From: Cytophagaceae bacterium
GTDB taxonomy: Bacteria > Bacteroidota > Bacteroidia > Cytophagales > Spirosomataceae
NCBI GenBank assembly: GCA_027486845.1
Contig: JAIXOL010000008.1
Span: forward strand, 62,001-126,000
Direction of reading: 5' to 3'
DNA: 64,000 bases
Both the position numbers and the translations under genes were made by a program. Below the pieces are notes generated by a model, which did no database searches, was not told the DNA's origin, and was given only the letters and a program-made list of their open reading frames with translations. This document shows, piece after piece, positions 3,691 to 12,832 of this stretch (position 1 is the stretch's first letter; every line of letters begins with the position of its first letter).

Positions 3691-4311
3691 TTGAAACACT
3701 TCTGGGTCATATTCAAATTATTGTTATTGATAGTTTTTGCACTTCGTTTATTAAAATCTAATCGAAAAGTAGCAAAATTTGAGCATGACCAAAAACGTGG
3801 GTTTTTCAATTTATTTCAAGAAAGAGCCTTTTCTGAAAAAATAGTTTTTACACTTGAAAGCACTACGCATGAGTTACAGTTAAAAGAACTTTTCCGAAAA
3901 ATCATTCGCCCAAAAGAAGAACTTTGGAAACAAAACGGCGGACAACTCGATGATTTTTTTACTACTTTGACTTTAGAAGAACGCATCATTTACGTAGTAT
4001 ATCTTTCCAATAAAAGTTTGCAGAAAGGGAGTATTTTCAACTTTTTATGGTATAAAACCGAATGGATTATTGCTTTTGGACAGATTTTGAAACACGTGAA
4101 AGAAGAATCGCTTTACGCTCATTATCAACAAGTTATCCTCGAAACTTGTCATTTTGATTTGGAAAGCATTTCGCCTGAACACAAAAACTTTTTCGACCTC
4201 GAACTTCACCCTGATGGAAGCAAAGAATTTGACTCAGTTAGGCTTTTTGATAAAGAATTTGATAGAAATGTATTTTATCTGAAAGCCACATCCTTTAGCA
4301 CCTTAAACTAA
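3691..4311 (+). CDS. Hypothetical protein with N-terminal membrane anchor
   Basis: A 206-aa protein that I do not recognise. Residues 3-20 (FWVIFKLLLLIVFALRLL) form one hydrophobic helix, followed by a charged, Phe-rich, soluble-looking region with many Glu/Lys. The only plausible start is TTG at 3691, 24 nt after the DUF1501 stop, so it may be the last gene of that operon. Its 3' end overlaps the convergent ABC exporter gene by 9 nt, which leaves no room for a separate terminator. Codon use resembles its neighbours. Confidence 0.65.
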   Translation: MKHFWVIFKLLLLIVFALRLLKSNRKVAKFEHDQKRGFFNLFQERAFSEKIVFTLESTTHELQLKELFRKIIRPKEELWKQNGGQLDDFFTTLTLEERIIYVVYLSNKSLQKGSIFNFLWYKTEWIIAFGQILKHVKEESLYAHYQQVILETCHFDLESISPEHKNFFDLELHPDGSKEFDSVRLFDKEFDRNVFYLKATSFSTLN

Positions 4312-6507
4312 TTCCATCCATGCTTCATTATAAATATTATTTGTAGTACTCAATTGCTTATGGCTACCCGAATTGATAATTTCGCCATTTTCAATTATAT
4401 AAATCCTGTCGGCTATTCTAGCAGTTTGTGGCTTATGTGTTACCAAAATTATTGCCATTTCGTTTCTGATTTTATGAAGCAATTGCAAAATAAACTTTTC
4501 AGTTATTCTATCCATTGCTGAAGTTGCTTCGTCTAATAAAAGTAGTTGTGGATTTCGATATAATGCCCTTGCCAAAGCTACCATCTGCCTTTGTCCACCC
4601 GAGATATTGATACCTTCTTCGCCTAAAATAGTTAAATAACCTTGTGGAAAATCTTCAAAAAACTGTGAAAATTTATAGCTTTCACAAAATTCAATAACTT
4701 TTTTGGCTTCTTCTTGTGTATTTTCTAAACAAATATTATCTAAAAGTGTGCCATTGAAAAGTTTAGTTTGTTGTGGAACAACACCTAAAATATCTCGCCA
4801 TGCTTTTGTATCAATTTTATTCCAATCTTCTGAATTAACAACAATTTTACCAGAATCTACTTCATAAAACCTTTGAATAATTTGAATTAATGTGCTTTTT
4901 CCAGAGCCACTTTCACCCCATAAAGCTATCATTTCTCCTTTTTTTACATTTAAAGAAATGTTTTTGAGTAAAAGTTTTCTACCGACGAAGCGAAAAGACA
5001 AATTTTTGATTTCTAAATTTAAAAACTCCGAGCCATTGGGAACCGAGCGTAGTCGAGGTTTTGTTTCAATATTCACAAACTCAAACATTCTATCAAAAGC
5101 TACTTTTGCTTCTTGAAGCTGAATATTGGTCATTGCTAAGGCACTCACCGCAGGGATAATATTTCCAGCAATTGATAAAATGGCCATCATTTCGCCAATT
5201 TTCAAGGTTTTAATGATGACTAACCAAGAAGCACAGCTTATCATACCGACTAATAAAACAACAGAAATTATTTCGCCTAAAAGTCCAAAATACAAGCTTA
5301 ATTTGCCTAAATTATATACTTTTGTCTGAAAAACACCATAAATTATTTTTGTAAGATTAATGAAAAATGGTTCTTTATTACTTGCTTTGATTACTTCAAT
5401 GCCTTGAATAGTATCAATATAATTACTTTCATTTTGGGCGTAAGAAGCCATTACTTCTTTTTGTTGTCTAATGATTTTTTTGTTAAAAAACCATACTAAA
5501 CCCCCAAATAAAGGAATACTTGCCAAAGCAACCAAACCTATTGAAACCGAAATTGTGAAAACATAGATTGACGAAGCAATTAAAACCAATAAATTAATAA
5601 GCACATTGCCAGTAAGAAAACTAACTGTTTGCTGAATACGTCGGGTATCATTCATTCGAGCAATGAGTTCTCCTGTTTTACGACTATCAAAAAATGACTT
5701 AGGTAAACTTAGGAGTGAACTATAAAAACCATCAATAATGCGATTATTGAAGCCCTGACTTTGCTGATTGAGTAGAAAACCACGCAAGTAGCTCATAAAA
5801 CTACGTGCAAGAAGCAAAATAAAGAGTAACACCAAACCTAAAATAAGTCGTTTGGTATCTTGTTTGGGTAAAATATCATCTATCAATCTTTGTGAAAAAA
5901 TAGCCGTTGAAATACCTAAACTTGCAATAATAACGCCCATGATTGATGCAATACCCAAAATCGTAAAGTCTGGGCGAACAATATTCAAAAACCATTCCTT
6001 TTTTTGTTGCTGTTCCTCCGAAACTTGCTTCAAGTGCTCATTTGGCGTTAGCACCAATAATGCCTTTGTTTGCCAAATTTTATCTAATTCCTTTACCGAA
6101 TATTCAATAATTCCCTTTGCAGGGTCGCCAATGGTTAAAGTTTTATTCTCTTCTGAATTATTCAAATTAGGGTAAAACACTAAATAATGTTCCATTTTCC
6201 CTTCTAAAACTACATGGAGAATAGCAGGAGTAGAGAGTTCTTTTAAATTATCGATACTTTCGGCTTCCATGCCTTCTGCTGTGAATCCTATTTGGTTTGC
6301 TGCTTGATATAAACCCAAAAGTGTTGTGCCTTGCTTATCTGTGCCACTTAGCTCACGCAAGCGTTCGAGTTTCATTTCTCCCCCATGAAACCTCAGAATA
6401 GAAAGCAGACAAGCCACACCACAATCTGACTGCCCTTGTTGCAAGGTAAAGCCTTTGGATTGAGAATGATTTTTATTTGAAAACAAATTAGTGAAAAAAA
6501 GTTTCAT
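4303..6507 (-). CDS. C39-peptidase-containing ABC exporter (peptide/bacteriocin type)
   Basis: A 734-aa ATP-binding exporter with three parts. The N-terminal C39 cysteine peptidase has Gln23/24 and Cys29 (QSDCGVACL), His107 (MEHYLVF) and Asp128 (IGDPAKG), so the triad is intact. A six-helix ABC type-1 membrane domain spans about 180-460. The nucleotide-binding domain has Walker A GESGSGKST (about 528), signature ISGGQ (about 635), Walker B LLLLDEATS (about 655) and the H-loop THK. This family cuts double-glycine leaders during export; a matching GG-leader peptide lies upstream in the same gene string. Residues about 484-489 (RLRSVP), in the linker before the ATPase, are encoded by a copy of a dispersed repeat. 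No HlyD adaptor gene is adjacent. Confidence 0.95.
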   Translation of the reverse strand: MKLFFTNLFSNKNHSQSKGFTLQQGQSDCGVACLLSILRFHGGEMKLERLRELSGTDKQGTTLLGLYQAANQIGFTAEGMEAESIDNLKELSTPAILHVVLEGKMEHYLVFYPNLNNSEENKTLTIGDPAKGIIEYSVKELDKIWQTKALLVLTPNEHLKQVSEEQQQKKEWFLNIVRPDFTILGIASIMGVIIASLGISTAIFSQRLIDDILPKQDTKRLILGLVLLFILLLARSFMSYLRGFLLNQQSQGFNNRIIDGFYSSLLSLPKSFFDSRKTGELIARMNDTRRIQQTVSFLTGNVLINLLVLIASSIYVFTISVSIGLVALASIPLFGGLVWFFNKKIIRQQKEVMASYAQNESNYIDTIQGIEVIKASNKEPFFINLTKIIYGVFQTKVYNLGKLSLYFGLLGEIISVVLLVGMISCASWLVIIKTLKIGEMMAILSIAGNIIPAVSALAMTNIQLQEAKVAFDRMFEFVNIETKPRLRSVPNGSEFLNLEIKNLSFRFVGRKLLLKNISLNVKKGEMIALWGESGSGKSTLIQIIQRFYEVDSGKIVVNSEDWNKIDTKAWRDILGVVPQQTKLFNGTLLDNICLENTQEEAKKVIEFCESYKFSQFFEDFPQGYLTILGEEGINISGGQRQMVALARALYRNPQLLLLDEATSAMDRITEKFILQLLHKIRNEMAIILVTHKPQTARIADRIYIIENGEIINSGSHKQLSTTNNIYNEAWMELV
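5038..5060. repeat. Dispersed GAGCGTAGTCGA-type repeat inside a CDS
   Basis: The core CCGAGCGTAGTCGAGG at 5043-5058 belongs to the same family as 23500-23519 and 36024-36043. Here it is translated in frame as part of the linker (KPRLRSVPNGS) between the membrane and ATPase domains of the C39 exporter. Confidence 0.6.
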
Positions 6508-6573
6508 GGAATGGATTGGATAAGTTTGCGATTAACCATTCGATAAGTAGATATAGTATTTTTAGCAGCATGA

Positions 6574-7083
6574 TTATAGATATTTTAGAATAACTTCGAT
6601 TTTGGTTTCGCCGTCGAATTTTCTTACAAGTTTTTTGTCTTTATAAATCAAAATTGTTGGATTTGTGCTAATGTTAAAGTTCTTATTCAAATCTGTTATT
6701 GAAATTTTTGCAATTTTCAGTGAAGGTATTGTTTCTTGAATTTTATATTTTTCTTCAAACTTCAAAAGATTTTCTATTGGTTCAATAGAAAGCCAAAGCA
6801 CATTTCTATTTTTGAAATTATTTTTATATTTAATAATTTCTTCTGCTTCATTTTGACAATGTTCGCAGTCAGTATTAAAAAAGAAAATAATTGAAGACTG
6901 ATTAGTAAGATTTTGTAAATCTATTTTTGAACCATCTATTTTGTCTAAAATTATTTTAGACATCGTTTTTTCATTTTCTCTTTTTACTTGAATAGATTCA
7001 TATTTCTCAATAATCAGAAAAGCTAATCCGAATATGATAATAATTGATAGCGATATAATTAACCATAAAATTTTCTTTCTCAT
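6574..7083 (-). CDS. Membrane-anchored thioredoxin-like protein
   Basis: A 169-aa protein with one N-terminal transmembrane helix (about residues 5-24) and a periplasmic thioredoxin/TlpA-like fold. The redox motif is CEHC at Cys73-Cys76 (FFFNTDCEHCQNE), and STNPTILIY supplies the cis-proline loop. Such proteins oxidise, reduce or isomerise disulfides outside the cytoplasm. It lies 7 nt after the preceding membrane-protein gene and 66 nt before the C39 exporter on the same strand. The GG-leader peptide of this locus would carry two cysteines after cleavage, so a role in its disulfide is a reasonable inference; cytochrome or respiratory thiol work is the alternative. Confidence 0.85.
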   Translation of the reverse strand: MRKKILWLIISLSIIIIFGLAFLIIEKYESIQVKRENEKTMSKIILDKIDGSKIDLQNLTNQSSIIFFFNTDCEHCQNEAEEIIKYKNNFKNRNVLWLSIEPIENLLKFEEKYKIQETIPSLKIAKISITDLNKNFNISTNPTILIYKDKKLVRKFDGETKIEVILKYL

Positions 7084-7090
7084 ATAATGA

Positions 7091-7726
7091 TTAATTTGAA
7101 AACATGAGGCTAAATAGACTTACAGCAAGCGACCAAATAAAAAAAGGCAAAACGTAGGCGAATAAAACTAATTTTAGACTTTTAGGAAATGATTCATTAG
7201 TGATTTCATGTATTTTTGATGATAATATTAATACATAGAAAACTTCTAATATACTTACAAAACTAAATAAATACGAAAAAGGTAAAAAATCTTTTCCATT
7301 GAAAATACTATATAAAGAAAGACTAAAAAGGTAATTTGTTTCAACATTTGGACTAATATTAAGCAACAAATACCAAATGATTTTTAATAAATCGGGTAAA
7401 AAAAATATTAACTCTAATAGTATTACAGTAGCTAAGATTTCAGATAATTTGAAATTAATATTCAAAAAATAGCTTCCAGCCCTTAATGAAAGTATAATAA
7501 ATAAAATTTTTGGGGGATAAATAAAAATTAATTTTAACAAAAAATTAAATGTTAAAAACTTTTCCCAGTAAAATGAATTATCCAGTTTTATGCCATCAGA
7601 TTCTGTTAAAACTTCTCTGATAGGTAGTTCAACATATCTAAACGAAGTATATGAAAAAATGAATATTGCTAATATTAAAAAAATAGAAGCAATAGCAATT
7701 TTTTGAGTATTATTTTGTATCGTCAT
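7091..7726 (-). CDS. Multi-span integral membrane protein of the peptide-export locus
   Basis: A 211-aa, very hydrophobic protein with about five predicted helices (residues roughly 9-26, 65-85, 95-118, 145-170 and 185-208). No catalytic motif is visible. It starts 12 nt downstream of the CarboxypepD_reg gene and ends 7 nt before the thioredoxin-like gene, so the three are almost certainly cotranscribed. Its position in a peptide-secretion locus would suit an immunity protein or an export accessory, but nothing in the sequence decides this. Similar orphan proteins are sometimes labelled permease-like in Bacteroidota. Confidence 0.75.
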   Translation of the reverse strand: MTIQNNTQKIAIASIFLILAIFIFSYTSFRYVELPIREVLTESDGIKLDNSFYWEKFLTFNFLLKLIFIYPPKILFIILSLRAGSYFLNINFKLSEILATVILLELIFFLPDLLKIIWYLLLNISPNVETNYLFSLSLYSIFNGKDFLPFSYLFSFVSILEVFYVLILSSKIHEITNESFPKSLKLVLFAYVLPFFIWSLAVSLFSLMFSN

Positions 7727-7738
7727 AGCAGAAATATT

Positions 7739-9067
7739 TTAATTCCAAAACCACCATTTCTTTTTTGTGATAATTTTGCCGTTTTCGGCGAATTGTACCT
7801 CTAAAGGCTTCGCTTTTTCCAAGTCAAGTTTTACTTTATCATTTAAAGGAGCTAAAAGCAGTAAGTTATAGTTTGTCCAAAAATCTGTATGATATTCAAA
7901 TTCTCCCTCTTCTAAATATTCTTCTTTACTTTGAGCTATCCTATTTTTTACTCTATCAAATTCTTTTCGAGAAGTAATTATATTATTGATTAGTAAAAGA
8001 GAAGCTTCAAATTCTTTAGTATTTTGGTAAGTTATATTTTCAATAAAAGAGGGGTAACTCAAACCATTTTGAGTTTTATAGATAGTCAGTTTTTTTGTAA
8101 AAACATCGGGCAATCCATTAGAAAATGAAATGTTTTGGTAATCAACTTTTGCTAAACTTCCTACGTTTCCAAAATATTCTTCCTGTCTGATAATTGTTTT
8201 ATCATCTTTTCTGATAAATAAATACCCATATTCTTCATATCTTTGAGTATTTTGAGTTATACTCATACCCTTACGAGAATACTCAACAATATAGACAGGA
8301 CAACCATCATAAACTGAAAAGTCTTTTAATCTAAATTCAAACCAACTTAAAAATTTCTTTGTTGTCACATTTATTTCATTGTTTTGCATTGAAATATAAT
8401 TTCTTAACATTGGAGAAGTATAAGTATTAATAAGGCTATTCTTTTTATCAAACATCCGTCTAAACATTTTTTCCATAAAACTTCTATCCCCATCAAAATT
8501 GCTTTTACGTAATTCATTAACTCTTATTTTAGCTCTTTCAGTTGGTGTTTGAAATCCATAATCTTGTATATCAACATCCGCTTCAACCAAATGCACGAAA
8601 CTTTCATCTTTTATACGTAATTCTCTATAAAACCCTGATAATAGGTGGTTTTTATTAATATATTTCAATTTTATTTGATTGACCGCTTGGGTTACAATAT
8701 TAAGTGTTCCCTCTTTAGCCTCTTTAATATCTATTGCACTAAGTAAAATCTCATCAATCTCTAAAAAAATCACATATTCTTTATCCGCATTTTCAGTCTT
8801 TATTTGTGTAGTATTTACAGCAACTGATTTATAACCTATGCTTCCTATTTCAATAGGGTATTTGCTAAGTGAATCTGCAAAATGAAAAGAGAATTTTCCT
8901 ACCTCATTGGATAAAGTGCCTATTCCTACTTTTTTAATTTGTATGCTGGCATATTCAACAGGTGTCGAATCTTTTTTACTTAAAAGCATTCCTTGAAATA
9001 CTTTATATTGTCCAAGTAATTGTAAGGAAGTTGCAAATAAAATCACGAAAATTGAAAATCGCTTCAT
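7739..9067 (-). CDS. CarboxypepD_reg-like (beta-sandwich) exported protein
   Basis: A 442-aa protein with a Sec signal peptide (MKRFSIFVILFATSLQLLGQ). A carboxypeptidase-regulatory-like beta-sandwich spans about 21-110 (FQGMLLSKKDSTPVEYASI, GTLSNEVGKFSFHF). The rest (about 115-442) is Lys/Asp/Glu-rich and mostly beta, resembling the body of Bacteroidota proteins that follow this domain; I see no TonB plug or clear barrel. It starts 62 nt after the GG-leader peptide gene and leads an operon with the membrane protein, thioredoxin-like protein and C39 exporter. A periplasmic or outer-membrane role in export is inference only. Confidence 0.85.
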   Translation of the reverse strand: MKRFSIFVILFATSLQLLGQYKVFQGMLLSKKDSTPVEYASIQIKKVGIGTLSNEVGKFSFHFADSLSKYPIEIGSIGYKSVAVNTTQIKTENADKEYVIFLEIDEILLSAIDIKEAKEGTLNIVTQAVNQIKLKYINKNHLLSGFYRELRIKDESFVHLVEADVDIQDYGFQTPTERAKIRVNELRKSNFDGDRSFMEKMFRRMFDKKNSLINTYTSPMLRNYISMQNNEINVTTKKFLSWFEFRLKDFSVYDGCPVYIVEYSRKGMSITQNTQRYEEYGYLFIRKDDKTIIRQEEYFGNVGSLAKVDYQNISFSNGLPDVFTKKLTIYKTQNGLSYPSFIENITYQNTKEFEASLLLINNIITSRKEFDRVKNRIAQSKEEYLEEGEFEYHTDFWTNYNLLLLAPLNDKVKLDLEKAKPLEVQFAENGKIITKKKWWFWN

Positions 9068-9129
9068 GTAAATAATTTTAAAAGCACCTACAAGTTTTAG
9101 TCTTGCAGATGCTAAATGGATACTGTTGA

Positions 9130-9354
9130 TTACTGTTCTGCTCTAAAAATTATTACATTTCCAGTTCCACTTTCAACAACCATTCCATATCCCAACCCAC
9201 CACAACCAGCGTTGATAAAACCTGAAATTGCTCCACCACCTGCTCCCCCATTAATAGAATTGTTTTGGGTAATTGTAGCTAATGATGAACAATACTCAGC
9301 CGCACCAATGCCTCCATTGTATGAAGCCATTTGATTTACTTCTAATTTTTTCAT
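9130..9354 (-). CDS. Double-glycine-leader secreted peptide (bacteriocin-like precursor)
   Basis: A 74-aa precursor. Residues 1-15 (MKKLEVNQMASYNGG) form a short GG leader: Gly at -1/-2, with hydrophobic residues at -4 (Tyr12), -7 (Met9), -12 (Leu4) and -15 (Met1), the spacing recognised by C39 peptidases. Cleavage after Gly15 would release a 59-residue peptide starting IGAAEYC, with two cysteines (Cys22, Cys51) and a Gly-rich core (GGAGGGAISGF, GCGGLGYG) like membrane-active class II bacteriocins. A C39 exporter and thioredoxin-like protein are in the same operon. It might be an antimicrobial, a signal or a modified natural-product precursor; I see no modifying enzyme. The antisense frame (9116-9334) is its shadow. 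Confidence 0.85.
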   Translation of the reverse strand: MKKLEVNQMASYNGGIGAAEYCSSLATITQNNSINGGAGGGAISGFINAGCGGLGYGMVVESGTGNVIIFRAEQ

Positions 9355-9490
9355 TGTGATAAAAATTTAATAAGCTTACCTACTCTAAATGCTTTTCGGT
9401 ATCCGCAACATTTCTATAAAAACGCTACCGCCGGCTGGAGAATTTTTGTTTGAAACGCAAGGCAAAGGTTTAAAGAAAAACCGCGAAAGT

Positions 9491-9534
9491 AAATACTCCC
9501 AAAGGAGTATTTTGGGAGTAGAAAATGAGTATTT
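9491..9534. promoter_or_regulatory. Nested alternative inverted repeats between luxR-type gene and GG peptide
   Basis: AATACTCC (9492-9499) and GGAGTATT (9504-9511) form a perfect dyad around CAAA. CTCCCAAA (9496-9503) can instead pair with TTTGGGAG (9511-9518), and AAATACTC (9491-9498) with GAGTATTT (9527-9534, reaching the last codons of the regulator gene). The three pairings are mutually exclusive. This fits either an operator with repeated half-sites or an RNA switch in the intergenic part of the transcript upstream of the peptide gene. Confidence 0.5.
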
Positions 9535-9793
9535 ATCTAAAAACAGCACCAATATGTCGTAAAAATTGACGTATTTCGCTTGTGCCTTGTAGGTTGAGTT
9601 TTTCGTAAATGTTCTGTCGATGTTTTTTTACAGTTTGGTCAGAAATGCACAATTGATTGGCAATTTCTTTGTTAGTGAGGTCGGTGGAAGCAAGTTTTAA
9701 AACATTTAATTCTTGGTTTGTAAGTGTGTTCAGAACAGCCTCCTTTTTTAAAAGATAGTATTCGTTACGGTGTTGATAGTCAAGTGGTTCCAT
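9533..9793 (-). CDS. Small LuxR/GerE-type HTH transcriptional regulator
   Basis: An 86-aa protein that is almost only a LuxR-type DNA-binding domain (residues about 25-80: LTNQELNVLKLASTDLTNKEIANQL, then ISDQTVKKHRQNIYEKLNL as the recognition helix region). No receiver or ligand domain is present, so it may be controlled by its own level or by a partner protein. It lies 178 nt upstream of the GG-leader peptide on the same strand, the position of a pathway regulator. The larger PAS-LuxR protein at 59084 ends in a comparable HTH. Confidence 0.8.
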   Translation of the reverse strand: MEPLDYQHRNEYYLLKKEAVLNTLTNQELNVLKLASTDLTNKEIANQLCISDQTVKKHRQNIYEKLNLQGTSEIRQFLRHIGAVFR

Positions 9794-10084
9794 AAAATAA
9801 TAAGTGTGTTTAAGTAGGGGTAGTTTTGAAAATTTACAATAAATATATTTAATTATATGAGTAATTAATCTTCATTTTTTGGGATATTCAAATATAACGA
9901 TTACTAATATAAATCAAAAAAAATACAAATAAATTTAAGGGTTGGTAAAATCTTTAAAATCGCTAAATTTTATTGATAAAATCATTTCTATAAATTTGAA
10001 AAAAATAATTGAGCAAAATACATTTACTCAAACAATTTCGTTTACTTTAAAATACAAATCTAAAACACATTTACCTTTAATATT

Positions 10085-12832
10085 ATGACACAATTTTTCC
10101 GCTCAAAACTTTACCTCTTTGCTTTTTGTCTCTGTACAATTTCTACTATTTCAGCCCAAACATTCACCATCAAGGGAGTGGTTCGTGATGCAAAAACCGC
10201 CGAAGTCGTGCCATTTGCCAATGTCTTCATTGCCAATACAACCAAAGGCACAAGCACCAACGAAAATGGCGAATATACCCTCTCAAAAATACCATTTGGA
10301 ACTGTCATTGTCTCGGTATCAATGGTGGGCTATGCTCCTGCACGCCAAACCATTAGAGGCGAAAACGATACCATGAAGGAAATCGACTTCACCATTAGCC
10401 CAAACGAGCAAGAACTAAGTGAGGTGAAAGTCTCGGCAAGCAGAGATAAAACTTGGGAAAAACAATTTCAAAGATTTTCAAAAGCCATTTTGGGCGAAAG
10501 TCCACTTGCTAAAGCTTGTCAATTCAAAAACAGTTATCAGATAAATTTTGAAGATACAAAAGGAGTTTTAAAAGCCTCAAGTATTCGCCCCATCGAACTC
10601 GAAAATTTGGCATTGGGCTACCGAATATTCTTTACACTCACTGGTTTTGTTTTAGCCAATGATGAAATTCAATATCAAGGTTACTCTCTTTTTGAAGAAA
10701 TAAAGCCAATCAGCGAAAAAGAAGCTAATAAATGGACACAAAACCGCCGCATGGCTTTTGAAGGCTCCGACCGTCATCTTTTTTGGGCCTTGGCTCAACG
10801 AAAACTTAAAGCCGAAGGCTATGAAGGATTTGTAGATGCAGTAGGGTTTAATCCTGCCAACCGTACCAGTAATTTTTACGGTCAATTGGGGAAAAGTATT
10901 TTGGCGTACCCGATAGATTCTCTTGTGCGAAAAGGAAAAATAGCTTCAGAATACCGCATTAGGTTTCCAAGACGCATCGAGTTACACTTTGCAAGTCCAT
11001 ACTACAACGGGCAGTTTTACCGTGATGATGCACGCATGATTACATGGATAGAAAATCTAAAAGATTTAGATTTCAATGACCGTGGTGTAATTCAAAATCC
11101 CAAAGATTTGATTATTTCGGGTTTTATGAGCAGTAAACGCTTAGCCGAAATGCTTCCGCTCGATTATCTACCTAACCAAAGCATCGAACGAGAAATTCCT
11201 AAAGAAAAACTGAATATAGAGCTTGATTCTACAACCCAAAAAAGCTTATGGCGTTTGCAAGAACAAGTGCAGCTCACAACCAATAAATCGTATTTTCATC
11301 TAAACGAGAACCTTTGGTTTTCGGGCAAAATGATATATGCTGATGCTACCATGAGCGACTCTATCAGTAAAGTGGTTTATGTAGAATGGATAAACCCTAA
11401 AAACGAACTGATTAGTCGTCAAAAACACCGCGTTGACTCACTTCATTTTAGAGGAATGTTCACACTTCCTGCCGAACTTTCGTTGGGCAATTATCGACTT
11501 CGTGCTTATACGAAATGGATGCAAAATTTTGGAGATTCGTGCTTTTATGAACAGATTATTCCTATTATTTCACCCAAACAGTACATTGCTGATCATACGG
11601 CCCCAAAATCTGTTTTTAAAGTCGTAACTGATAAAAAAAACTATCAAACTCGTGAGAAAATCAATGTAACGATTGAAGGTATCAAGCCCGAAAACTTGAC
11701 AGTTTCGGTGACAGATACAATGGCGGTTCGACGAGTAAAAGCTTTGGTTTCGCAAGGAAAGGCATTTTTACCACAGTCGAGTTTCAAAACCATTCCCGAT
11801 TTTAAATATTTAGCCGAAACAGGGCTGAGCCTTTCGGGTAAAGTTTTGGATAAAAATGACAAACCCGCTTTGGCCAATCTGGTTTTCTATTTCGGAAAAG
11901 CCAAATCTACAGTTACAGCTTTGACGGATACCGAAGGTAAGTTTTCGGTATCGGGCATTCAGCTAGGTGATACTACCGACATCAGCTATCAAGCAACCGA
12001 CCTAAAAGGGAAATTACTCGAAAAAGTACTTTTTGATGCCGAAGAATTTCCTCTAATAAAACCTTCTAACCTCAAGCCCAATTTCACCGTAAAAGACTTA
12101 CAATCAACAGTTTTAATAGAAAAAGACATTGACTTACCAAAAGATGCTATTCAGCTTGAAGAAGTAAGCATAACCACCAAACGCAGCGAAAAACAATTCG
12201 TAAGTAAACCAATCTACGGAAATCCTGACTTTACGGTTTATGCCAAAGATTTAGGCCCAGCTTTGATTGGCATGAATCCAATCGTTGCTTTACAAGGAAG
12301 AGTGCCTGGTTTGCAAATAGTGGTTGCCGTTGAAGGCCTAATAAAAGTAAGAATGCGAGGTGGACAAAATTCGATTGAAGGTAGCTCCGACCCTTTATAT
12401 TTGCTTGATGGTTTTCCAGTAGAAGATGTAAATTCGTTAATGAACGTCAGCATGGATAACATCGACCGCATTGAGGTACTAAAAACTGCCCGTGCGATGT
12501 TTGGTTCACGAGGGGCAAATGGCGTGATTGCAATTTATACTAAATCATCAGTTTCAAAGCCATCAGAGCGAAATAATGCTGGCTTAAAATCAAGTGCTAA
12601 ACAGTTGACAGTCATTGGTTATCACGAATCAAAATCTTTCTTTAGTCCAAATTACAGCACGAGCCAAGCTAAAGAATCTACTAAACTAGATATCAGAACC
12701 ACAATTTTTTGGCAACCAAATCTTTCAAGCAATACATTCTCGTTTTACGCCGCAGACAATGCCAGCGTTTATAGAATTTTAGTAAGTAATGGCGATGAAA
12801 CTTCGGAGACTTTCGTGCAGATTAAAAACTAA
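10085..12832 (+). CDS. CarboxypepD_reg and TonB-plug domain protein lacking a beta-barrel
   Basis: A 915-aa exported protein (signal peptide 1-25, ending STISAQ). Domains in order: CarboxypepD_reg-like sandwich (about 26-115), a long region of unknown type, probable beta-sandwich repeats (about 370-560, FSGKMIYADATMSD, LGNYRLRAYTKWMQNF) resembling alpha-2-macroglobulin MG2-type domains, a second regulatory-like sandwich (about 580-650), and a TonB plug (about 695-830: GMNPIVALQGRVPGLQI, DPLYLLDGFPVEDVNSLMN, IDRIEVLKTARAMFGSRGANGVIAIYTK). Only about 80 residues follow, far too few for a 22-strand barrel. A family of plug-bearing macroglobulin-like proteins exists in Bacteroidota; function is unknown. 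It is divergent from the luxR-type gene at 9793. Confidence 0.88.
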   Translation: MTQFFRSKLYLFAFCLCTISTISAQTFTIKGVVRDAKTAEVVPFANVFIANTTKGTSTNENGEYTLSKIPFGTVIVSVSMVGYAPARQTIRGENDTMKEIDFTISPNEQELSEVKVSASRDKTWEKQFQRFSKAILGESPLAKACQFKNSYQINFEDTKGVLKASSIRPIELENLALGYRIFFTLTGFVLANDEIQYQGYSLFEEIKPISEKEANKWTQNRRMAFEGSDRHLFWALAQRKLKAEGYEGFVDAVGFNPANRTSNFYGQLGKSILAYPIDSLVRKGKIASEYRIRFPRRIELHFASPYYNGQFYRDDARMITWIENLKDLDFNDRGVIQNPKDLIISGFMSSKRLAEMLPLDYLPNQSIEREIPKEKLNIELDSTTQKSLWRLQEQVQLTTNKSYFHLNENLWFSGKMIYADATMSDSISKVVYVEWINPKNELISRQKHRVDSLHFRGMFTLPAELSLGNYRLRAYTKWMQNFGDSCFYEQIIPIISPKQYIADHTAPKSVFKVVTDKKNYQTREKINVTIEGIKPENLTVSVTDTMAVRRVKALVSQGKAFLPQSSFKTIPDFKYLAETGLSLSGKVLDKNDKPALANLVFYFGKAKSTVTALTDTEGKFSVSGIQLGDTTDISYQATDLKGKLLEKVLFDAEEFPLIKPSNLKPNFTVKDLQSTVLIEKDIDLPKDAIQLEEVSITTKRSEKQFVSKPIYGNPDFTVYAKDLGPALIGMNPIVALQGRVPGLQIVVAVEGLIKVRMRGGQNSIEGSSDPLYLLDGFPVEDVNSLMNVSMDNIDRIEVLKTARAMFGSRGANGVIAIYTKSSVSKPSERNNAGLKSSAKQLTVIGYHESKSFFSPNYSTSQAKESTKLDIRTTIFWQPNLSSNTFSFYAADNASVYRILVSNGDETSETFVQIKN

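What the first reader, a model, noticed from the sequence alone, without database searches (positions are those of the whole stretch)
4303..9793. Compact GG-leader peptide production and export locus
Six minus-strand genes: small LuxR-type regulator, 74-aa GG-leader peptide, CarboxypepD_reg protein, multi-span membrane protein, thioredoxin-like protein, C39 exporter. Gaps are 178, 62, 12, 7 and 66 nt. The exporter has an intact C39 triad (Cys29, His107, Asp128) and the peptide has the right leader spacing, so substrate and protease match. No lanthipeptide or radical-SAM enzyme is present. The gene combination, with a CarboxypepD_reg protein and no HlyD partner, is not one I can name.
Basis: partly seen in the sequence, partly recalled or inferred. 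Interest (0 to 1): 0.82.

Follow-up and report, generated by a model that had tools for sequence, protein, structure and literature searches.

The report
Bacteriocin island with a secreted partner
A bacterium, probably of the genus Emticicia, carries an acquired six-gene block that probably makes and exports a small antibacterial peptide and guards against it; the export machinery is of a known kind, but the peptide and the secreted protein paired with it form a variant I did not find described.

Summary
The "unnameable" set is known: membrane protein, thiol oxidoreductase, C39 transporter and GG-leader peptide without HlyD is the bacteroidetocin machinery (Coyne 2019, PMC6671954). Our membrane, thioredoxin and exporter queries all match a locus with that layout. 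In the 5 congeners where the site can be read, the block is absent.

New are the peptide and its partner. The peptide belongs to a two-cysteine family (EYC here); in 5 loci, window included, it directly precedes a homolog of the CarboxypepD_reg protein. Across HlyD-free loci, peptide hydropathy predicts the next gene: a secreted protein after 16 of 19 less hydrophobic peptides and 0 of 26 hydrophobic ones, of which 21 precede multi-span proteins (cut-off set afterwards). EYC peptides fetched later: 14 of 16.

Best reading: a disulfide-bonded bacteriocin with the secreted protein as cognate immunity. Production and export are well supported by sequence; killing and immunity are inferred. New variant of a known kind.

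The parts
9310..9354 (-). 15-residue double-glycine leader of the peptide gene (MKKLEVNQMASYNGG)
   Evidence: 81 of 100 candidate peptides in related loci have a leader of this length
9130..9309 (-). 59-residue core peptide and stop; two cysteines (residues 22 and 51 of the precursor), computed pI 4.3
   Evidence: EYC family alignment A6 and genome hits
7739..9067 (-). CPD: secreted-type protein, CarbopepD_reg_2 domain plus a C-terminal part without a Pfam match above cut-off; candidate cognate immunity protein
   Evidence: homologs directly after EYC peptides in L082, L170, L173, L226
7091..7726 (-). MEM: membrane protein with 5-6 predicted spans and no cysteine; counterpart of the bacteroidetocin TM protein
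   Evidence: no significant PDB match
6574..7083 (-). TRX: thioredoxin-like protein with N-terminal hydrophobic segment and CEHC, presumed thiol oxidoreductase
4303..6507 (-). EXP: C39 peptidase-containing ABC transporter, intact motifs
   Evidence: falls with the MEM-linked exporters
9533..9793 (-). LUX: 86-aa LuxR-type DNA-binding domain, inside the inserted block
4277..10013 (.). inserted block (approximate ends): alignments to congeners stop at 4221-4276 and resume at 10014-10154

Best explanation
An acquired operon for a class II-like, disulfide-bonded bacteriocin using the HlyD-free bacteroidetocin-type export module. The 74-residue precursor is docked by its GG leader on the C39 domain, cut after Gly15 and moved by the ABC transporter into the periplasm. 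There the anchored thioredoxin-like protein, with the help of MEM, forms the Cys22-Cys51 disulfide. Release from the cell is by an unknown route. The CPD protein, secreted to the periplasm or outer membrane, is the cognate immunity protein that shields the producer at the peptide's site of action. LUX regulates the block. Shown by sequence: the genes, the intact motifs, the insertion, the homologous machinery, the recurring peptide-partner pairing. Inferred from the bacteroidetocin precedent: cleavage, disulfide, need for MEM and TRX, killing of other Bacteroidota. Inferred from gene patterns only: immunity by CPD. My odds: production and export 0.85, antibacterial 0.75, CPD as immunity about 0.5.
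For: Machinery: in the 77 of 82 loci for which a TRX gene was called, MEM was present in 66 (directly upstream of TRX in 63), and a gene of the exporter's BLAST cluster, which also takes in other ABC ATPases, in 67. A locus with the published bacteroidetocin layout (TM, 60-aa peptide with 15-aa leader and four Cys, TRX, EXP; L224) matches our MEM, TRX and EXP queries at 7.5e-24, 3.6e-22 and 4.6e-118. Published: four genes give toxin from E. coli; deleting TM or thiol oxidoreductase weakens it. HlyD within 5 kb: 4 of 59 exporters with MEM against 16 of 19 without; a first count with other filters gave 4 of 62 against 9 of 13. The two exporter sets are parted by one change on a FastTree of 78 when the 3 with neither are left out. 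Peptide-partner: EYC peptide directly followed by CPD in 5 loci (window, L082, L170, L173, L226). Less hydrophobic peptides precede a secreted-class protein in 16 of 19, hydrophobic ones in 0 of 26 (21 multi-span); one per related group 10 of 13 against 0 of 21; base rate of that class 268 of 877 genes. EYC peptides fetched later: 14 of 16. Partners go with peptides rather than exporters: two pairs by one exporter in L084, three pairs with one full exporter in L260, two pairs by one MEM in L268; further partner copies without a peptide of their own in L096, L262, L263, L267; pairs with no MEM, TRX or exporter on either strand of the fetched stretch in L266, L271 and L272.
Against: Bacteroidetocins A and B had no immunity protein and inhibit their own producers, so this system may need none. 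The hydropathy cut-off of 1.5 was set after seeing the data (it holds from 1.2, with 13 of 15 against 3 of 30, to 1.6), and 55 of 100 candidate peptides were dropped before the count; my secreted class is a hydropathy rule, not a signal-peptide predictor. Most CPD homologs serve something else: 123 of 390 Cytophagales genomes have a match, and of 20 regions fetched around high-ranking hits 4 (L170, L171, L172, L173) lie with MEM and an exporter. MEM has stand-alone relatives (7 regions checked), so it is not dedicated to peptides. The window core (59 residues) is longer than the 42-53 of bacteroidetocins, and the window MEM is very divergent. The CPD structure model failed (mean pLDDT 45), so its fold is unknown. 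The route across the outer membrane is unknown; Coyne et al. allow that cells may have to lyse.
Confidence: 0.6

Rival explanations
1. CPD (and the lipocalin-like, GLPGLI and LolA-like proteins in the same slot) is not immunity but a peptide-specific carrier that takes the exported peptide across the periplasm or to the outer membrane, replacing HlyD and TolC.
For: The loci as a rule lack HlyD (4 of 59 exporters with MEM have one near), so a periplasmic route is missing. Some partners score, below cut-off, as lipocalin-like, LolA-like or DUF4412; lipocalin and LolA folds include ligand carriers (recalled).
Against: Hydrophobic peptides with the same exporter kind lack a secreted partner (0 of 26), although they would seem to need a carrier most. 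Partner copies occur without a peptide of their own (L096, L262, L263, L267) and pairs lie without exporter (L266, L271, L272).
Confidence: 0.2
2. The peptide is a signal or self-acting peptide (pheromone) rather than a bacteriocin; LUX responds to it.
For: A LuxR-type gene lies in the inserted block; LuxR-type regulators or kinases lie by some related loci (cluster 5, 13 of 77 loci; L120).
Against: LUX is only a DNA-binding domain of 86 aa without a receiver or sensor domain; no LUX relative was found in the fetched stretches of L170, L171 and L173. The peptides vary strongly and have varied partners.
Confidence: 0.1
3. The block is decaying cargo that makes nothing, as at one of the two sister loci in the same genome.
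For: The sister locus on C81 has lost most of its exporter; the window MEM and TRX are AT-rich (23% GC) and the MEM is very divergent.
Against: All six reading frames are open, exporter motifs are intact and the CEHC motif is kept.
Confidence: 0.1

Closest known systems
Bacteroidetocins (proposed class IIf; Coyne et al. 2019, PMC6671954; target BamA, Matano et al. 2021, PMC8546649)
   Same: TM protein, thiol oxidoreductase, C39 ABC transporter, GG leader of 15 residues, at least two Cys, no HlyD named in the set; acquired or mobile
   Different: Core of 59 rather than 42-53 residues; two rather than four Cys (A and B); peptide in front of a secreted CPD gene instead of between TM and oxidoreductase genes; a candidate immunity gene, where none was found for A and B
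Colicin V-type export (C39 ABC transporter + membrane fusion protein + TolC; described in PMC10352776, passage)
   Same: GG leader and C39 transporter in a Gram-negative
   Different: No HlyD-type or TolC gene in the block; MEM and TRX instead; exporter in a separate group
Class IIa (pediocin-like) bacteriocins with a disulfide accessory protein
   Same: GG leader, disulfide, C39 transporter; a PedC/BrcD-type disulfide isomerase accessory is known (PMC13289728, passage)
   Different: No YGNG-type motif in the window peptide; Gram-negative host; a different accessory membrane protein

Membership tests
Bacteroidetocin (class IIf) | Leader of 15-16 residues ending in GG | tested here: met
   15 residues; definition from PMC6671954 section 14
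Bacteroidetocin (class IIf) | At least two cysteines in the peptide | tested here: met
   Cys22 and Cys51
Bacteroidetocin (class IIf) | Core of 42-53 residues | tested here: not met
   59 residues; range from PMC8546649 passage
Bacteroidetocin (class IIf) | Ortholog of the TM protein, thiol oxidoreductase and C39 transporter beside the peptide | tested here: inconclusive
   Homologs of all three in L224, which fits the published layout; the named A-D loci themselves were not available for comparison
Bacteroidetocin (class IIf) | Peptide retrievable by iterated tblastn from bacteroidetocins A/B | not tested
   I found no sequences of A or B in the passages and sections read; figures are not held and supplement look-ups are capped at 0
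Bacteroidetocin (class IIf) | Kills Bacteroidota, through BamA | not testable with these tools
   needs peptide assays
Colicin V-type export | HlyD-type membrane fusion protein with the C39 exporter | tested here: not met
   no match to seven HlyD/TolC queries within 5 kb of the window exporter
Class IIa (pediocin-like) | YGNGVxC motif after the leader | tested here: not met
   read from the sequence; motif from PMC6671954
Lanthipeptide or radical-SAM peptide | Modification enzyme beside the precursor | tested here: not met
   none among the six genes of the block and the two flanking genes scanned

The most novel reading that the evidence does not exclude
The HlyD-free export module of Bacteroidota serves two physical kinds of peptide, each paired with immunity in the matching compartment: hydrophobic peptides with multi-span inner-membrane partners, and less hydrophobic two-Cys peptides (the EYC family among them) with secreted partners of several kinds. 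CPD in the window would then be, as far as my searches show, the first immunity protein proposed for a bacteroidetocin-type system, acting in the periplasm or at the outer membrane. In relatives of one family such peptide-partner pairs lie behind a G run of varying length, so that arming and protection could switch on and off together.
Probability: 0.45. Interest if true: 0.75.

Novelty: new variant of a known kind. Interest (0 to 1): 0.58.

Why it matters
Bacteroidetocins A and B are reported without immunity genes, and it is open how producers live with such peptides. If the secreted partners are immunity proteins, the partner's kind and compartment point to where each peptide acts, which makes target finding direct. 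The MEM-TRX module as an alternative to HlyD-TolC, on a separate branch of C39 exporters, also gives a marker for finding such peptides in Bacteroidota genomes, where the small precursors are often left unannotated (16 of 35 regions in Coyne et al.).

Tried and rejected
Window peptide alone as query in its family: only the own genome of 150; kin came through a local search, synteny and the profile A6. LUX as a conserved part of the system: no relative in the fetched stretches of L170, L171, L173. A DsbB/VKOR-like role for MEM: rejected, because 11 of 68 aligned members have no cysteine, the window's among them. MEM fold: Foldseek against PDB gave one match, at E 8.7. CPD fold: model too poor to search. 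One clade of CPD-linked MEMs: neither shown nor rejected (AU p 0.39). Named bacteroidetocin loci: a plasmid search with a Bacteroidales MEM found 1 record, Flammeovirga; a Phocaeicola plasmid with a C39 exporter has HlyD and TolC.

Recounts: a note gives 13 of 15 for the later EYC peptides; recounted it is 14 of 16. One search labelled 17 ORFs in 15 fetched regions (L269 had none); L258 is left out as a copy of L109; misses are L259 (no GG, next ORF only 76 aa) and L270 (next gene 1,313 nt away). The 15 regions were chosen from the 46 matches listed: the matches with E up to 8e-4 whose loci were not already held, plus one at 0.0024 (G376); weaker ones were not fetched.

Dropped rows: 55 of 100 candidate peptides (leader not 14-16 residues, fewer than two Cys, next gene over 250 nt away, or next gene another peptide or none; the reasons overlap). 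In one search, 5 of 82 loci had no TRX call (L069, L076, L077, L129, L133); L061, L075 and L089 were left out beforehand as copies. The HlyD/TolC queries were taken from fetched loci: one HlyD and one TolC named by Pfam, two of each by record annotation, one HlyD (L072) by eye.
Full report
WHAT IS THERE. Six minus-strand genes at 4303-9793, as described: exporter EXP, thioredoxin-like TRX, membrane protein MEM, CarboxypepD_reg protein CPD, GG peptide, LuxR-type LUX. The exporter has C29, H107, D128 and the ABC motifs; TRX has CEHC behind an N-terminal hydrophobic segment; the peptide has a 15-residue leader and a 59-residue core with two Cys. The names EXP, TRX, MEM, CPD, LUX and EYC are mine. 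The genus is most likely Emticicia: genome G006 is of the same genus, and its contig C39 (37,058 bases) is the contig of record L089, titled Emticicia agri MAG.

THE BLOCK IS AN INSERTION. Of the 10 congeners held, five have a close ortholog of the right-hand flanking gene (74-89% identity). In all five (G004, G005, G007, G008, G010) alignment to the window stops at 4221-4276 and resumes at 10014-10154, with no match to LUX, CPD or EXP in the stretch. The other five cannot be judged at this site. Single-sequence searches found MEM in 0 of 10 congeners and the peptide in 0 of 10. GC is 23% in MEM and TRX and 30% in the whole locus, against 36% for the window. The own genome holds two sister loci, on C24 (exporter open, three GG-leader ORFs, extra ABC genes) and on C81 (exporter mostly lost). 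G006 has the counterpart of the C81 locus, cut by a contig end and with an interrupted exporter (L059).

THE MACHINERY IS KNOWN. A profile of TRX found 78 loci, in records titled as Bacteroidota but for one Balneolaceae MAG and one 'uncultured bacterium'. In the 77 of 82 loci with a TRX call, MEM is in 66, directly upstream of TRX in 63; genes of the exporter's cluster, other ABC ATPases among them, lie at +1 in 56 and at +2 in 21 cases. Coyne et al. 2019 (PMC6671954; outline, passages, sections 14 and 27 in full) describe the same set: a protein with five TM regions, a bacteriocin-like peptide, a thiol oxidoreductase and a C39 ABC transporter; the four genes suffice in E. coli; no immunity protein. 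I could not compare with the named bacteroidetocins themselves. HlyD lies within 5 kb of 4 of 59 exporters with MEM and of 16 of 19 without (Fisher 2e-10); an earlier count with a different exporter filter gave 4 of 62 and 9 of 13. All four exceptions (L072, L083, L095, L103) also carry a gene of cluster 11, by eye an FtsX/MacB-like permease, so the adaptor may serve that. One HlyD query came from L072 itself, which works against the contrast. On a FastTree of 78 exporters the MEM and HlyD sets are parted by one change when the 3 exporters with neither are left out; with them in, MEM needs 3 and HlyD 2. A MEM profile matches 13 of 295 Bacteroidia genomes, the own one included. Seven fetched regions with a MEM relative (L043, L216, L218, L220-L223) hold no TRX or exporter match.

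THE PEPTIDE AND ITS PARTNER. The window peptide is kin to peptides in L109, L170, L171/L226, L173 and L082: Tyr-Cys shortly after the leader, often GG-x-Q-G in the middle, a second Cys about 24-30 residues on. In window, L082, L170, L173 and L226 it is followed directly by a CPD homolog and then by MEM; L173 and L226 repeat the window order completely, L170 has no TRX, L082 has two MEMs. A sixth case, L272, has a longer GG peptide with a weak EYC score in front of CPD, without MEM, TRX or exporter. CPD belongs to a wider family: 123 of 390 Cytophagales genomes match, and of 20 regions fetched around high-ranking hits 4 lie with MEM and an exporter (L170, L171, L172, L173; in L172 CPD lies behind the exporter).

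A RULE ACROSS LOCI. In 92 loci, 100 candidate GG peptides were found in 66. After filters 45 remained. With a cut at maximal 19-residue hydropathy 1.5, the next gene is of the secreted class after 16 of 19 less hydrophobic peptides (the other three: TRX in L224, one soluble, one single-span) and after 0 of 26 hydrophobic ones (21 multi-span, 3 MEM, 2 soluble) (Fisher 1.5e-9). One per related group: 10 of 13 against 0 of 21. The cut was set after looking; at 1.2 it is 13 of 15 against 3 of 30. The secreted class is a hydropathy rule of mine; its base rate in these loci is 268 of 877 genes. Of EYC peptides fetched afterwards, 14 of 16 are followed within 250 nt by a secreted-class gene: ten of 140-147 aa, by eye like the lipocalin-like one of L109 and not scanned, three of 210-238 aa, one CPD. 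Pfam support for partner kinds is weak for some (Lipocalin_4 0.0016 in L109, LolA_like 2.7e-4 in L044, DUF4412 0.004 in L084, all below cut-off; none for L042, L076 and L225) and clear for Porph_ging, the GLPGLI kind of the record annotation, in L192 and L193.

HOW IT LIKELY WORKS. Leader docking, cut and export by EXP; oxidation by TRX with MEM; peptide in the periplasm and then out by an unknown route. Partners go with peptides rather than with exporters (L084, L260, L268), occur without a peptide of their own (L096, L262, L263, L267), and whole pairs occur without a system in the fetched stretch (L266, L271, L272). That is how immunity genes behave, and the compartment fits the peptide type. 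Bacteroidetocin A acts on BamA at the cell surface (PMC8546649, passages), which makes a periplasmic or outer-membrane immunity protein plausible for a less hydrophobic peptide. This is inference.

AGAINST. Bacteroidetocins A and B have no immunity; a carrier role for CPD is not excluded; pairs without exporter could also mean that the partner has another job; the MEM of the window is highly divergent and its place among MEMs unresolved; there are no expression data here.

NOVELTY. "Bacteroidetocin" occurs in 15 papers of the library. In the four I looked into (PMC6671954, PMC8546649, PMC10352776, PMC11195462; passages, and for the first also sections) I saw no secreted partner and no such peptide family; the other eleven I saw as listings only. 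Searches brought nothing closer in their listings. Most subscription papers are not in the library. Verdict: new variant of a known kind; without the partner rule the block would be ordinary.

Noticed in passing
One of the 12 (L259 9552) precedes a different small secreted protein, and one of the 23 regions was no peptide start. Varying length suggests a phase-variable promoter. Runs of 8 or more G/C: 14 of 26 in or just before system genes that cover 22.7% of the sequence (p 5e-4). The window has no run of 7 or more G/C.
   Followed up: partly
L041 8434-8736 (own genome, C81), L044 6097-6453, L045 10653-10967, L073 6038-6337, L077/L078, L088, L091, L194 7174-7521, L195 1962-2285: A small HTH protein near such loci ends in a GG-leader-like stretch with GG near residue 88 and an 11-30 residue tail. 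A profile matches 36 of 150 family genomes; of 30 matching ORFs in the loci fetched, 12 have GG at that place, mainly the best-scoring ones. A DNA-binding regulator that may itself be a C39 substrate or sense exporter load.
   Followed up: partly
L044 9951-9959 (Lacihabitans) and L059 6188-6196 (Emticicia agri MAG): Two exporters of different genera are interrupted at a run of nine G in the same linker between membrane and ATPase domains; either a switch or a sequencing fault.
   Followed up: partly
G000:C24 (L040) and G000:C81 (L041): Two sister loci in the same genome: C24 with three GG-leader ORFs, extra ABC transporter genes and, by eye, a glycosyltransferase-like gene; C81 decayed.
   Followed up: partly
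L043, L216, L218, L220, L221, L222, L223: Members of the MEM family without TRX or exporter match on either strand of the 16 kb fetched; their role is unknown.
   Followed up: partly
L096 6795-10163: CPD - second-type MEM - CPD behind an exporter with no GG peptide listed between them, as if partner genes had been collected.
   Followed up: no
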